Assembly (NCBI GenBank): GCA_027451305.1
Contig: DAIDJQ010000014.1
Span: forward strand, 1-8,664
Source of the DNA: Cellulomonas sp.
Lineage (GTDB): Bacteria; Actinomycetota; Actinomycetes; Actinomycetales; Cellulomonadaceae
Direction: 5' to 3'
Length of the DNA: 8,664 nucleotides
Below, in pieces: positions 1,708-6,832 of the stretch; the stretch's first letter is position 1; each line of letters begins with the position of its first letter. A program made the position numbers and the translations under genes. The notes under the pieces are model-generated. The model saw nothing but the letters and a program-made list of their open reading frames with translations, searched no databases and was not told the DNA's origin.

Positions 1708-2733
1708 CTACGCCGGCTGGTGCTGCATCCGCATCTGCGCGTACAGGGCGGCGACCCGGGTGGCCTCGATCATGCTCTCGCCCTGCGCCACCCCCTTGCC
1801 CGCGATGTCGAACGCGGTTCCGTGGTCCACCGAGCTGCGGACGAAGGGCAGGCCGAGCGTGATGGTGACCGCGTTCTCGAAGTCCAGCGTCTTGCAGGCG
1901 ATGTGGCCCTGGTCGTGGTACATGGACAGCACGCAGTCCCAGCGACCGTCCAGCGCCAGGGCGAAGATCGCGTCCGCCGAGATCGGTCCGATCGCGTTGA
2001 TCCCGAGCCGTTGGGCGTCCTCGACGGCGGGACCGATGTGCTCGATCTCCTCCGTGCCGAACATGCCGCCCTCACCCACGTGAGGGTTCAGCGCGGCCAC
2101 GGCGATGGACGGGTGCTCGAAGCCGAGCTTCCTCAGCTCGGCGTCGATGTTCTTCAGGTAGGTCAGGATGCGGTCGCGGTTGGCGAGGTCGCACGCCTGC
2201 CGCAGTGCGACGTGCCGGCTGACGAAGAACACCCGCAGCTTGTGCACGTTGAACATGGTCAGCGCGTAGGGCGCGTGCGTCAGGGCTTGGTAGATCTCGG
2301 TGTGGCCGATGTACGGGACCTCGGCCGCCTTGAGCGCCGCCTTGTTGATCGGCGAGGTCGACACCGCGTCGATCCGGCCCTGCAGACCGAGCTCGATCGA
2401 CTTCTCCAGGTAGGAGTAGGCCCGCAGCGCGGCGTCCTTCTGGACGGTGCCGAACTCGATCCGCGCACCGGGTGCGACGCCGGTGTCCAGGAGGTCGATC
2501 GTCCCCAGCTCGAAGGCCGCGTCCTCGGGCTCGCTGATCTCGTGGATCTGCAGCCCCTCGACGCCCTGGATCTCGGCGGCCCGCTCGAGGCTGTCCCGGC
2601 TCCCGATGACGAACGGGGCGCAGAGCTCGTGGACCGTCGGCTCCAGGATGGTCCTGAGCACGATCTCGGGCCCGATGCCCGCCGGGTCACCCAGCGTGAT
2701 GGCCATCCTCGGCCTAGACGACGACTGCTTCAC
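1708..2733 (-). CDS. pdxA2: PdxA2-type 4-phospho-sugar-acid dehydrogenase (decarboxylating)
   Basis: NAD-dependent, metal-dependent dehydrogenase that oxidises the beta-hydroxyl of a phosphorylated sugar acid; the beta-keto acid then loses CO2. For 4-phospho-D-erythronate or D-threonate the known product is DHAP. The 341 residues are the usual PdxA length. Seen: N-terminal TLGDPAGIGPEI (13-24), STSPINKAAL (125-134), and the three metal-ligand histidines in IGHTE (His144), LNPHVGEGG (His218) and YHDQGHIACK (His273). The GHIA after HDQ, instead of the GLPV typical of the vitamin B6 enzyme PdxA, and its DUF1537 neighbour point to the PdxA2 branch. The start is GTG 2733: AGAGGAG lies 8 bases upstream and the frame overlaps the kinase gene by 20 bases, suggesting translational coupling. 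ATG 2706 is a weaker alternative. Last gene of the operon. The family is firm; whether the substrate is C4 or C5 is open. Confidence 0.92.
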   Translation of the reverse strand: MKQSSSRPRMAITLGDPAGIGPEIVLRTILEPTVHELCAPFVIGSRDSLERAAEIQGVEGLQIHEISEPEDAAFELGTIDLLDTGVAPGARIEFGTVQKDAALRAYSYLEKSIELGLQGRIDAVSTSPINKAALKAAEVPYIGHTEIYQALTHAPYALTMFNVHKLRVFFVSRHVALRQACDLANRDRILTYLKNIDAELRKLGFEHPSIAVAALNPHVGEGGMFGTEEIEHIGPAVEDAQRLGINAIGPISADAIFALALDGRWDCVLSMYHDQGHIACKTLDFENAVTITLGLPFVRSSVDHGTAFDIAGKGVAQGESMIEATRVAALYAQMRMQHQPA

Positions 2734-4090
2734 GTCTGCGACTCCTCTCGTCGAAGATCCTGTTGACCGACTGGACGGCGGTCATCTCTGTGCCGGTGAG
2801 CCCGCCCTTGCACACCACCGGGAGACCCGAGTACGGCCCGCTGACGAGCACACCCTGGTCGATCTGCGGTGCGACGAAGTCGACGAGCGTGATGCCCCGC
2901 GCACCCAGGGACCCGCACGTGCTGACCATCACGTCGCCGCCGGTGAGGTAGAAGCCGGCGCACGAGTCCCGGATCTCGTCGGCGACCGCGCGGGCGACCA
3001 CACCCAGCCTGCCGGTGAGCAGAGCGGATATCTGACCGCTCGTCAGGCCGGTGACCTGCTGGGTGTGCTCGATGTCGGGCGCGGCACCGGCCAGGACGCT
3101 GTCGAAGGCCAGCACCAGGACGCGTGGCGGGGACCCGCCTGCGGTGAGGTGCCGCACCTGGCCGAGGACGCGCTCGACCTCGGCCTGGAACACCTCGGCC
3201 GGGCCGAGGAGCTCCATCACGCGCACCCCGACCGCCTGCGTGCCACCCACCTCGCGCAGCGCCTGCACCTGGACGTGCGTGAGGTCGCTCGCGCTGCCCG
3301 CCACGACGAGGACCGTGCCGGAGTCGTCGTGGCGGGGCTCCGTGCGGATGGTTCGCCCGGGCACCGCCCCGCCGGCCACGGCGCCGCTGTGGACGGCGAC
3401 CCGCTCGGTGAACGGCCCCGGGTCGACGCACACCGTGGCCAGTCCCAGCTCGACCACGGTCCGGGCGATCAGGTCCACGTCCTCCATCGACGTGGCGTCG
3501 AGCAGCACCACCCGCACGCCCTCCGCGCGCAGCTCCAGCAGCCGGCTGCGCAACGCCTGCGGGCCCTGCAGCAGCACGGCCAGCGGGACGTGCGCCAGGG
3601 CGAGCGTGAACTGACCCGACAGGAGGGTCGGCAGGTGCGACTCGACCACCGGGGTCCTGACGTCGCGGGCCACCCCGGTGCGTGCCAGCAGGGTCGAGTC
3701 GATGATCGAGTACCCGTCGACGACGATCCTCTTGGACTGCGGCATCGCCGGGACGATGACGGCCACGTGGTCCTCTGGCAGAGCGGAGAGCATCCCCTCC
3801 ACCTCGGGGCCGATCCCGCCGCGGCAGGTGGTGTCGATCCGCTTGGCGAACTGCCGCACGCCCGCGTCCCACAGCGCCTGGGTCGCCCGCCGCACTCTCG
3901 CGAAGGCGACCTCCGGCGGCATCGCCCGGGAGTCGGTGCTGACGATCAGCGCCGAGTTCTCGCCCGGCCGGTGCTCGCAGACCGCGTCACGCTCGAAGAG
4001 CACCGTGGTCTCGACGCCCCGTCGCGCCAGCAACGCACCGACCGTCGTCGCTCCGGTCAGGTCGTCAGCGACGACTCCGACTCCCGGCAT
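2714..4090 (-). CDS. DUF1537 four-carbon-type acid-sugar kinase
   Basis: ATP-dependent cytoplasmic kinase that phosphorylates the terminal hydroxyl of an acid sugar; characterised relatives include D-threonate kinase DtnK, D-erythronate kinase DenK and 3-oxo-tetronate kinase OtnK. The 458 residues suit the family. Seen: substrate domain with VADDLTGATTVGALLARRG (7-25) and KRIDTTCRGGIGPEVE (83-98), then a nucleotide-binding domain with VVAGSASDLTHVQVQAL (262-278), TGGDVMVSTCGSLGARGI (383-400) and the C-terminal GPYSGLPVVCKGGLTG (418-433). ATG 4090 is chosen because GAGGGGAGAG lies just upstream and the protein then begins directly before the DDLTGA motif; the open frame to 4168 runs through the permease stop. 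It starts 28 bases after the permease and overlaps the pdxA2-like gene. Kinase plus PdxA2 matches the known DtnK/DenK-PdxA2 pairing. GGDVM and CKGG differ from the more usual GGDT and K-x-G-x-F-G forms, so it may belong to a divergent subfamily. Substrate is not assignable from sequence alone. Confidence 0.9.
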   Translation of the reverse strand: MPGVGVVADDLTGATTVGALLARRGVETTVLFERDAVCEHRPGENSALIVSTDSRAMPPEVAFARVRRATQALWDAGVRQFAKRIDTTCRGGIGPEVEGMLSALPEDHVAVIVPAMPQSKRIVVDGYSIIDSTLLARTGVARDVRTPVVESHLPTLLSGQFTLALAHVPLAVLLQGPQALRSRLLELRAEGVRVVLLDATSMEDVDLIARTVVELGLATVCVDPGPFTERVAVHSGAVAGGAVPGRTIRTEPRHDDSGTVLVVAGSASDLTHVQVQALREVGGTQAVGVRVMELLGPAEVFQAEVERVLGQVRHLTAGGSPPRVLVLAFDSVLAGAAPDIEHTQQVTGLTSGQISALLTGRLGVVARAVADEIRDSCAGFYLTGGDVMVSTCGSLGARGITLVDFVAPQIDQGVLVSGPYSGLPVVCKGGLTGTEMTAVQSVNRIFDERSRRREAVVV

Positions 4091-6332: not shown

Positions 6333-6832
6333 GAGGACACCGGCTCGGTCAGCAGGTCCACGCCTTCCAGCGCCCGGATCGCCTCGACCTTGGGCTCGGA
6401 GCGGGACGCCGGGTCGTAGCGCACGTCCAGCCACGCGTCGACGAGTCGCCGCGCGAGCTCGATGCCCACCACGCGCTGCCCCATGCACAGGACCTGCGCG
6501 TTGTTCGACAGCACGGACCGCTCGACCGAGTAGAGGTCGTGCGCGGTGACCGCCCGGACGCCCTTCACCTTGTTCGCCGAGATGGCGACGCCGAGGCCCG
6601 TGCCGCAGATGAGCAGCGCCCGGTCCACGACCCCGTCGGCGACGAGGTGGGCCGCGGATGCGGCGACGCTCGGGTAGAACGTGGCCTCGTCCCGCCGGAT
6701 CCCCACGTCGACCACGGTCGACACCCTGGGATCGGCCTGGAGGTCCTCCAGCAGCCGCGTCTTGTACTCGTAGCCCGCGTCGTCCGACCCGACGGCGACC
6801 CGCAGTGCGCCGTCCTGGTTCATCGCTTCCAT
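6326..6832 (-). CDS. RpiB-family isomerase, DerI/EryI-like (D-erythrulose-4-phosphate isomerase)
   Basis: Cytoplasmic sugar-phosphate isomerase of the RpiB/LacAB fold, 168 residues. Seen: VAVGSDDAGYEYK (12-24), FYPSVAASAAHLV (52-64), the catalytic-loop CGTGLGVAISANKVKGVRA (76-94) with Cys76, then AHDLYSVERSVLSNNAQVL (97-115) and MGQRVVG (117-123). The stretch CGTG-GV-ISANKV-G-RA followed by Y-ER--LSNNAQ is typical of EryI/DerI, which make D-erythrose 4-phosphate from D-erythrulose 4-phosphate; housekeeping RpiB reads closer to CGSGxGMxIAANR. SDDAG replaces the usual SDHAG, so a histidine of the RpiB active site is an aspartate. ATG 6832 is chosen for GAGGT 7 bases upstream; ATG 6823 is possible. 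First gene of the operon, reading away from the SorC-type regulator. Ribose-5-phosphate isomerase is the alternative; family resemblance and partner gene make it less likely. Confidence 0.87.
   Translation of the reverse strand: MEAMNQDGALRVAVGSDDAGYEYKTRLLEDLQADPRVSTVVDVGIRRDEATFYPSVAASAAHLVADGVVDRALLICGTGLGVAISANKVKGVRAVTAHDLYSVERSVLSNNAQVLCMGQRVVGIELARRLVDAWLDVRYDPASRSEPKVEAIRALEGVDLLTEPVSSC

What the first reader, a model, noticed from the sequence alone, without database searches (positions are those of the whole stretch)
1708..6832. Possible new pathway: five-carbon acid sugar to D-erythrose 4-phosphate
The operon joins two modules normally seen apart. DUF1537 kinase plus PdxA2 is the known route from D-erythronate/D-threonate to DHAP. 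The TIM-type and RpiB-type pair resembles LerI/EryH and DerI/EryI, which turn erythrulose phosphates into D-erythrose 4-phosphate, but no tetritol kinase or dehydrogenase is here. A single scheme uses all five genes: the permease imports a pentonate, the kinase makes the 5-phosphate, the PdxA2-type enzyme oxidises C3 and the beta-keto acid loses CO2, giving erythrulose 4-phosphate, and the isomerases correct the isomer and yield D-erythrose 4-phosphate. This is C4 chemistry moved up one carbon. The scheme is inference; the gene set and order are seen.
Basis: partly seen in the sequence, partly recalled or inferred. Interest (0 to 1): 0.72.

Follow-up and report, generated by a model that had tools for sequence, protein, structure and literature searches.

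The report
Sugar-acid operon feeding erythrose 4-phosphate
A five-gene bacterial operon, with relatives in several bacterial phyla, looks like an uncharacterised way to break down a sugar acid, most likely a branched five-carbon one, into a building block of central metabolism; the substrate is still unproven.

Summary
The gene set is real: RpiB-type, TIM-type, MFS permease, DUF1537 kinase and PdxA2-type genes on the minus strand (1708-6832), beside a divergent SorC-type regulator. It is not unique: of 80 related kinase loci, 80 carry PdxA and 41 also carry a TIM-family and an RpiB-family gene. [quoted passage not shown] The RpiB lacks the E. coli His99 equivalent, as reference DerI-type proteins do. 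Transaldolase, transketolase or PPi-PFK lie near 24 of 80. A linear pentonate 5-phosphate, however, would leave LerI idle. A branched acid, 2-C-(hydroxymethyl)tetronate (isoapionate type), phosphorylated at C4, fits every enzyme's known geometry and yields L-erythrulose 1-phosphate; the apionate route (OiaK/OiaX-LerI-DerI) is the precedent. Main rival: plain D-erythronate to DHAP, since the kinase's clade contains a protein named D-erythronate kinase. No substrate or activity is proven here.

The parts
6326..6832 (-). RpiB-family isomerase, predicted DerI-type D-erythrulose-4-phosphate isomerase; first gene of the operon
   Evidence: PF02502; TIGR02133 above cut-off (186/168), NF051858 DerI model below (148/240). 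Ser at the E. coli His99 position, Asp at the His10 position.
5571..6332 (-). TIM-family isomerase, predicted LerI-type L-erythrulose-1-phosphate isomerase
   Evidence: PF00121; loops GHAERR, WAIGAEEP, VDGLFLGRRAHD instead of AIGTG and GGAS; tree position with erythritol- and DhaK-locus TIMs, apart from canonical TIMs. Start GTG 6332 inferred from P0121's length.
4119..5507 (-). MFS permease, predicted sugar-acid importer
   Evidence: PF07690; TIGR00893 D-galactonate transporter 236 bits, below its cut-off of 395.
2714..4090 (-). DUF1537 acid-sugar kinase grouping with a protein named D-erythronate kinase
   Evidence: PF07005 and PF17042; 46% identity to P0075; tree.
1708..2733 (-). PdxA2-type dehydrogenase/decarboxylase; metal-site and catalytic residues kept, clade-specific Cys280 and Thr290
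   Evidence: PF04166; NF002992 476 bits over cut-off 470; residue counts.
6975..8051 (+). Divergent SorC-family regulator (start codon uncertain)
   Evidence: PF04198, 191 bits; a SorC gene stands beside the set in many actinobacterial and enterobacterial relatives.
6833..6974 (.). Divergent intergenic region, presumed promoter/operator
   Evidence: Position only; not analysed for sites.

Best explanation
The operon degrades a branched five-carbon sugar acid to D-erythrose 4-phosphate. Inferred steps: the MFS permease imports a 2-C-(hydroxymethyl)tetronate (isoapionate skeleton). The DUF1537 kinase phosphorylates C4. The PdxA2-type enzyme oxidises C3, the carbon next to CH2-O-P, as PdxA does on 4-phosphohydroxythreonine. 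The beta-keto acid loses CO2, giving L-erythrulose 1-phosphate. The LerI-type TIM makes D-erythrulose 4-phosphate and the DerI-type RpiB makes erythrose 4-phosphate, which transketolase and transaldolase (or PPi-PFK) take into the pentose phosphate network. Shown here: the gene set, its recurrence, LerI-type and DerI-type sequence signatures, and no other known maker of L-erythrulose 1-phosphate in the window. Not shown: any enzyme activity, or the substrate.
For: (1) PdxA in 80 of 80 kinase loci; TIM family and RpiB family together in 41; TAL, TKT or PPi-PFK in 24, or 20 if TAL and TKT must exceed 100 bits. Klebsiella plasmid copy: SorC|TIM|pdxA|kinase|kdgT|IIA|rpiB|tal|tkt. (2) 50 of 50 full-length cluster TIMs and 5 of 5 reference TIMs have LerI-type loops; 30 of 30 canonical TIMs from 29 of these genomes do not, so the TIM is not a spare DHAP-to-GAP enzyme. 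(3) Cluster TIMs lie in three separate places of the tree. (4) 51 of the 52 loci with an RpiB-family gene have one without His99 (50 Ser, L068 Val); 22 RpiBs from elsewhere in these genomes have His. (5) Other DUF1537-PdxA pairs: 0 of 5 with a linked TIM or RpiB; window-type kinase in the family of G002: 7 of 8 (L008). (6) 7 of 32 genomes have no DhaK-type (LerK-like) kinase over cut-off, yet all 7 have a LerI-type TIM at the kinase locus. (7) Two genomes have a separate DhaK-LerI locus and also their own LerI/DerI pair beside the kinase (L174/L180, L175/L181). (8) Precedent: oiaX-kinase-TIM-RpiB (kinase best matched by the OiaK model, below its cut-off). 3-oxo-isoapionate-4-phosphate decarboxylation: PMC6302742 passage. 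LerI and DerI chemistry: PMC10733421 passages.
Against: The kinase's clade contains the Moorella protein named D-erythronate kinase (P0075), next to L014 (support 87/83, not strong); D-erythronate would give DHAP. 17 of 80 loci have neither isomerase linked and 22 have only one. A DhaK-type gene lies near 6 of 80 loci, a possible separate erythrulose entry. G123 has kinase and PdxA2 without linked isomerases. LerI-type TIMs also occur in genomes without this kinase. The RpiB passes NCBI's ribose-5-phosphate isomerase model TIGR02133 and misses the DerI model. The window kinase did not match the OiaK model at E 0.001, so no sequence link to a known branched-acid kinase. I know of no common natural source of isoapionate.
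Confidence: 0.5

Rival explanations
1. Kinase and PdxA2 are the known D-erythronate (or D-threonate) route to DHAP; LerI and DerI in the same operon serve a separate tetrulose or tetritol entry whose kinase lies elsewhere.
For: Closest named relative is D-erythronate kinase, 46% identity, in the same clade. Its NCBIfam profile resembles the window kinase's: DtnK model best, below cut-off. DhaK-type genes near 6 of 80 loci and present in 25 of 32 genomes. DUF1537 kinases are described as acting on four-carbon acids (PMC10971088 and PMC7954711 passages).
Against: No DhaK-type kinase over cut-off in 7 of 32 genomes (other kinase families were not ruled out). No match at E 1e-10 to the EryB-, EryC- or OiaX-type queries near 80 loci. 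Other DUF1537-PdxA pairs lack the isomerases, 0 of 5. Extra LerI/DerI copies beside the kinase in two genomes.
Confidence: 0.28
2. One reading: a linear pentonate is phosphorylated at C5, PdxA2 oxidises C3, and D-erythrulose 4-phosphate results.
For: Same genes; pentonates are common (recalled); E4P output agrees with TAL/TKT/PPi-PFK near 24 of 80 loci.
Against: Needs only DerI, so the recurring LerI has no job. PdxA would have to oxidise a carbon one further from the phosphate-bearing one than in its known reactions.
Confidence: 0.12
3. A branched C6 acid (hamamelonate, 2-carboxyarabinitol) is handled and the isomerases act on pentulose phosphates.
For: Same branched acid head group (recalled chemistry); TAL/TKT nearby.
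Against: The RpiB lacks the His99 equivalent, recalled as ring-opening, and the TIMs carry tetrulose-type loops.
Confidence: 0.05
4. DHAP from a tetronate condenses with formaldehyde to L-erythrulose 1-phosphate: a natural erythrulose monophosphate cycle.
For: PMC10733421 (passages) raises such a cycle as possibly natural, with LerI, DerI, TKT and TAL.
Against: No aldolase that could do this was seen among the recurrent neighbour families scanned (not all neighbours were scanned); DHAP is available without this kinase.
Confidence: 0.03

Closest known systems
D-apionate/3-oxo-isoapionate pathway (OiaK, OiaX or OiaC, LerI, DerI; Carter et al. 2018, not held; steps recalled, decarboxylation cited in PMC6302742)
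   Same: DUF1537 kinase beside LerI- and DerI-type isomerases in Rhizobium plasmids; C5 acid decarboxylated to an erythrulose phosphate (recalled).
   Different: No OiaX-type match near 80 loci; PdxA2 would oxidise and decarboxylate instead. The window kinase does not match the OiaK model and falls apart from the oiaX-linked kinases in the tree.
D-threonate/D-erythronate pathway (DtnK or DenK + PdxA2 to DHAP; Zhang et al. 2016, not held; passages in PMC10971088 and PMC7954711)
   Same: Kinase branch and adjacent PdxA2.
   Different: That route as recalled needs no LerI/DerI; other DUF1537-PdxA pairs lack them, 0 of 5.
Tetritol catabolism (EltD/LerK or EryABC, with LerI/EryH and DerI/EryI)
   Same: LerI- and DerI-type enzymes, SorC regulators and transaldolase also lie in a Klebsiella plasmid erythritol-type locus.
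   Different: No tetritol kinase or dehydrogenase identified in the window; DhaK-type genes near only 6 of 80 relatives.

Membership tests
D-threonate/D-erythronate pathway | DtnK/DenK-branch DUF1537 kinase next to PdxA2 | tested here: met
   Groups with P0075 and is best matched by the DtnK model; adjacent PdxA2 in the window, PdxA in 80 of 80 relatives.
D-threonate/D-erythronate pathway | Kinase meets NCBI D-threonate kinase equivalog NF047819 | tested here: not met
   195.6 bits against 450; the named D-erythronate kinase P0075 misses it too (221.6).
D-threonate/D-erythronate pathway | Product is DHAP | not testable with these tools
   Needs an assay.
[quoted passage not shown]
   PDB 11ef, so named, shows the same loop type.
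[quoted passage not shown]
   Needs an assay.
DerI (D-erythrulose-4-phosphate isomerase) | Meets NF051858 cut-off | tested here: not met
   148 against 240; the model's name suggests it was built on rhizobial members.
DerI (D-erythrulose-4-phosphate isomerase) | No His at the E. coli His99 position, as in the reference loci | tested here: met
   Ser in the window and in the reference rows of L083-L087.
Ribose-5-phosphate isomerase (TIGR02133 RPI_actino) | Meets curated cut-off | tested here: met
   186 against 168; a model name is not a tested function.
Apionate (Oia) pathway | OiaX-type or OiaC-type decarboxylase present | tested here: not met
   No OiaX match at E 1e-10 near 80 loci, none among the window's recognised genes. 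OiaC was not used as a query.
Apionate (Oia) pathway | Kinase of the OiaK family | tested here: not met
   OiaK model NF042436 absent from the window kinase's hits at E 0.001; it is the best model for the Rhizobium kinase.
Tetritol pathway | Tetritol or tetrulose kinase and dehydrogenase in the locus | tested here: not met
   None identified in the window; near 80 relatives DhaK in 6, weak FGGY in 4, EryB/EryC queries in 0. Other dehydrogenase families were not searched for systematically.

The most novel reading that the evidence does not exclude
A widespread, uncharacterised pathway in which a PdxA-family enzyme acts on a branched five-carbon sugar-acid phosphate: a third gateway into L-erythrulose 1-phosphate, besides tetrulose/tetritol kinases and OiaX/OiaC, letting bacteria of several phyla eat an unrecognised isoapionate-type nutrient.
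Probability: 0.45. Interest if true: 0.75.

Novelty: new variant of a known kind. Interest (0 to 1): 0.6.

Why it matters
The operon type occurs in common bacteria (Klebsiella, Lachnospiraceae, Bifidobacterium, Gilliamella, Propionibacterium and others). In the annotated Klebsiella copy its genes are labelled vitamin B6, triose-phosphate and ribose-phosphate enzymes. If the reading holds, those labels mislead, an unrecognised nutrient is in play, and PdxA2 chemistry reaches beyond tetronates. It is directly testable by rescue of an E4P auxotroph.

Tried and rejected
Rejected: the TIM as a glycolytic helper for DHAP (cluster TIMs LerI-type; a canonical TIM in each of the 29 genomes searched). 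Rejected: that the combination is peculiar to this window. Little gain: own-genome search (none held); one DtnK-like protein as query in 79 genomes of Klebsiella's order (0 matches at E 1e-60), followed by family searches and a sample of the family of G002. Of the 11 weaker kinase matches, six were fetched; two of these six have PdxA beside them. Zhang 2016 and Carter 2018 are not held, so their gene-cluster figures could not be checked for this operon. Literature searches listed no title that I recognised as describing the pathway; only open-licence papers are held, and only passages of six papers were seen. Two of them, PMC9997740 (PdxA2 in organic-acid catabolism) and PMC10580937 (the aldolase-type erythronate pathway, no PdxA), showed no such operon in the passages seen. 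Structure prediction was not run. Only recurrent neighbour clusters were scanned, so a rare dehydrogenase or aldolase in single loci could be missed. The residue numbers and roles of E. coli PdxA and RpiB are recalled.
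Full report
OBSERVATION. The window holds, on the minus strand in transcription order, an RpiB-family gene (6326-6832), a TIM-family gene (5571 to about 6332), an MFS permease (4119-5507), a DUF1537 kinase (2714-4090) and a PdxA-family gene (1708-2733), with a SorC-family regulator on the plus strand (6975-8051). Families are; starts and the lengths of near-identical proteins. 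No tetritol kinase or dehydrogenase was identified in the window. No whole genome is held for it. The closest genome loci are actinobacterial.

CONSERVATION. A kinase alignment found 190 confirmed stretches, of which the best 80 were kept as loci. In them (up to 10 kb on each side of the kinase), PdxA is present in 80; a TIM in 49 and a divergent TIM alone in 3 more; RpiB in 52; a TIM-family and an RpiB-family gene together in 41; TIM only in 11; RpiB only in 11; neither in 17. Within 6 kb the figures are 51, 52 and 40 both, 17 neither. Some loci are cut by contig ends: among the 49 longer than 21 kb, 36 have a TIM, 33 an RpiB, 28 both and 8 neither. KdgT-type permease: 56; window-type MFS: 17. 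Transaldolase matches lie in 14, transketolase in 11, PPi-PFK in 7, any of them in 24; requiring over 100 bits for the first two leaves 10, 10 and 20. The annotated Klebsiella plasmid copy reads regulator, TIM, pdxA, kinase, 2-keto-3-deoxygluconate permease, PTS IIA, rpiB, tal, tkt. These extra enzymes fit consumption of erythrose 4-phosphate. The synthetic erythrulose monophosphate paper names transaldolase and sedoheptulose-bisphosphate variants (PMC10733421 passages); linking PPi-PFK to the latter is my inference.

THE TIM IS LERI-TYPE. The 30 best PF00121 matches in 29 of these genomes, one or two per genome, are canonical: 30 of 30 read AIGTG-like in loop 6 and GGAS-like in loop 8. The 50 full-length cluster TIMs (48 of the 80 loci, the Klebsiella plasmid and the window) lack both and read G[LVI]Fx[GT]R instead, 50 of 50; so do 5 of 5 reference TIMs from apionate-, erythritol- and DhaK-type loci. 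The PDB protein named L-erythrulose-1-phosphate isomerase (11ef) has the same loop. L070's TIM holds an in-frame stop and was left out; the three divergent TIMs (L042, L046, L074) were not tested for the loops. In a 42-row tree the 13 canonical TIMs form one group (100/97), and cluster TIMs lie in three separate places: with the erythritol- and DhaK-locus references, with the oiaX-linked references, and as L014/L076 (4 label changes, at least 3 forced by well-supported branches; the tool warns that this can also mean one gain and losses). I read it as repeated recruitment of LerI to a kinase-PdxA2 pair, the strongest hint that the pair's product is L-erythrulose 1-phosphate. All 29 genomes have at least two TIM matches. 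Where no LerI-type TIM lay in the kinase locus, one lay elsewhere in six genomes (L148, L149, L150, L153, L154, L156); in two others, G022 and G025, only divergent TIMs were found.

THE RPIB IS DERI-TYPE BY RESIDUES. At the position of E. coli RpiB His99 (ring-opening role recalled) the window has Ser. Of the 52 loci with an RpiB-family gene, 51 have one without this His (50 Ser; L068 Val); L049's is canonical. Of 30 RpiB proteins taken from the best matches, 22 have His and 8 have Ser; by their coordinates 7 of these 8 are the clusters' own copies and the eighth (L137) lies elsewhere in the genome of L018. A four-carbon phosphate cannot form the furanose ring, so the loss fits. Against it, the window protein passes the ribose-5-phosphate isomerase model TIGR02133 and misses the DerI model NF051858.

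CONTROLS. Other DUF1537 kinases with a PdxA near: L082 (plasmid), L182, L185, L177 (apparently fused) and L178. 0 of 5 carry a linked TIM or RpiB in stretches of 13-16 kb. L178 is a weak control: its PdxA is 32% identical and about 4 kb away, and its genome has a separate DhaK-LerI-RpiB-TAL-TKT locus (L179). In 117 genomes of the family of G002 (Propionibacterium australiense), the window-type kinase (over 590 bits) occurs in 8, and 7 of the 8 carry both isomerases beside it (for G200 the TIM is seen in L008, whose coordinates and scores match L169). G123 is the exception. Window-like TIMs (over 130 bits) occur in 14 of these 117 genomes, of which 4 have the kinase, so LerI is not exclusive to it; that search does not catch the other LerI lineages. 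In 79 genomes of Klebsiella's order, 8 have a second TIM, Klebsiella included.

SOURCE OF LERI'S SUBSTRATE. Known makers (recalled, and partly PMC10733421) are LerK of the DhaK family, the EryABC set, and OiaX/OiaC. Near the 80 loci a DhaK match (E 1e-20) occurs in 6, weak FGGY matches (E 1e-10) in 4, EryB-, EryC- or OiaX-type matches (E 1e-10) in none. In 25 of 32 genomes a DhaK family member exists somewhere; in 7 (G009, G011, G012, G014, G016, G019, G026) none passes the cut-off, and all 7 have the LerI-type TIM at the kinase locus. G167 and G180 have a separate DhaK-LerI locus and also their own LerI and DerI next to the kinase. So PdxA2 is the likeliest maker; other kinase families were not excluded genome-wide.

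CHEMISTRY (inference). PdxA oxidises 4-phosphohydroxythreonine to a 3-oxo acid that loses CO2 (PMC7954711 passages); the oxidised carbon is next to CH2-O-P. To obtain L-erythrulose 1-phosphate in this way the acid must be HOOC-C(OH)(CH2OH)-CH(OH)-CH2OP, a 2-C-(hydroxymethyl)tetronate 4-phosphate. A linear pentonate 5-phosphate gives D-erythrulose 4-phosphate and needs no LerI. The isoapionate skeleton is the reduced form of 3-oxo-isoapionate, OiaK's substrate. Rhizobium plasmids carry oiaX, a DUF1537 kinase, TIM and RpiB in a row; that kinase is best matched by the OiaK model, below its cut-off (467 against 700). PMC6302742 (passage) reports that RuBisCO-like proteins decarboxylate 3-oxo-isoapionate 4-phosphate. 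A parallel shows in the kinases: the Rhizobium kinases group with two kinases best matched by the 3-oxo-tetronate kinase model, whereas the window kinase, P0075 and L182/L185 are best matched by the D-threonate kinase model. So 3-oxo-acid kinases go with separate decarboxylases, and 3-hydroxy-acid kinases with PdxA2. The tree has long branches there, so this is suggestive only.

PDXA2. Metal-site and catalytic residues are kept in the window. Cys280 occurs in 84 of 84 clade members and in 0 of 11 others. Residue 290 is Thr in 83 of 84, Asn in five canonical PdxAs and L177, Ser in L082, L182 and L185, Thr in L178 and the second PdxA of L052. This marks a distinct subfamily; its meaning for the substrate is unknown. 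NF002992 (named PdxA of vitamin B6 synthesis) is passed narrowly, 476 against 470.

AGAINST. The only named member seen in the kinase clade is a D-erythronate kinase (P0075; name as the source wrote it; its assay is recalled). If the clade is D-erythronate-specific, DHAP is the product and LerI/DerI must serve something else; I rate that 0.28. Neither isomerase is linked in 17 of 80 loci. I know of no natural source of isoapionate.

VERDICT. A real, recurrent, coherent operon. New variant of a known kind. No paper describing it was recognised in the searched library; the two key papers are not held.

Noticed in passing
L081:8614-10332; P0101: The Klebsiella and Zophobihabitans kinases (572 and 576 aa) begin with a PTS glucitol-type domain (PF03612), and in Klebsiella a PTS IIA gene lies nearby: possible PTS control of kinase or permease.
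   Followed up: partly
L177 (G057:C41): DUF1537 kinase and PdxA apparently fused in one 798-codon open frame, in a small genome without a second TIM match.
   Followed up: partly
L012, L013, L014, L015, L022 PdxA: The His of the GHTE motif, a metal ligand in PdxA (recalled), is Gln (GQTE) in 5 of 84 clade members.
   Followed up: no
L049:6923-7426 and 37 other loci: A YcxB-like protein of about 170 aa occurs in 38 loci, in 37 directly after the KdgT-type permease; role unknown.
   Followed up: no
L042:7305-7988, L046:4805-5545, L074:4824-5531: Divergent TIM-family protein (L046's: 69 bits to PF00121) beside the kinase where no LerI-type TIM was found.
   Followed up: partly
L052:4802-7544: A second, distant PdxA (29%) directly followed by two genes with DhaK/DhaL matches, with changed active-site residues: possibly another PdxA pathway.
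   Followed up: no
L070, TIM at about 7537: The LerI-type TIM of this Klebsiella pneumoniae genome holds an in-frame stop; the plasmid copy in L081 is intact.
   Followed up: no
window 8163-8664 and 1-720: Start of a ROK/NagC-type regulator and part of an EmrB-type MFS efflux gene flank the operon.
   Followed up: no
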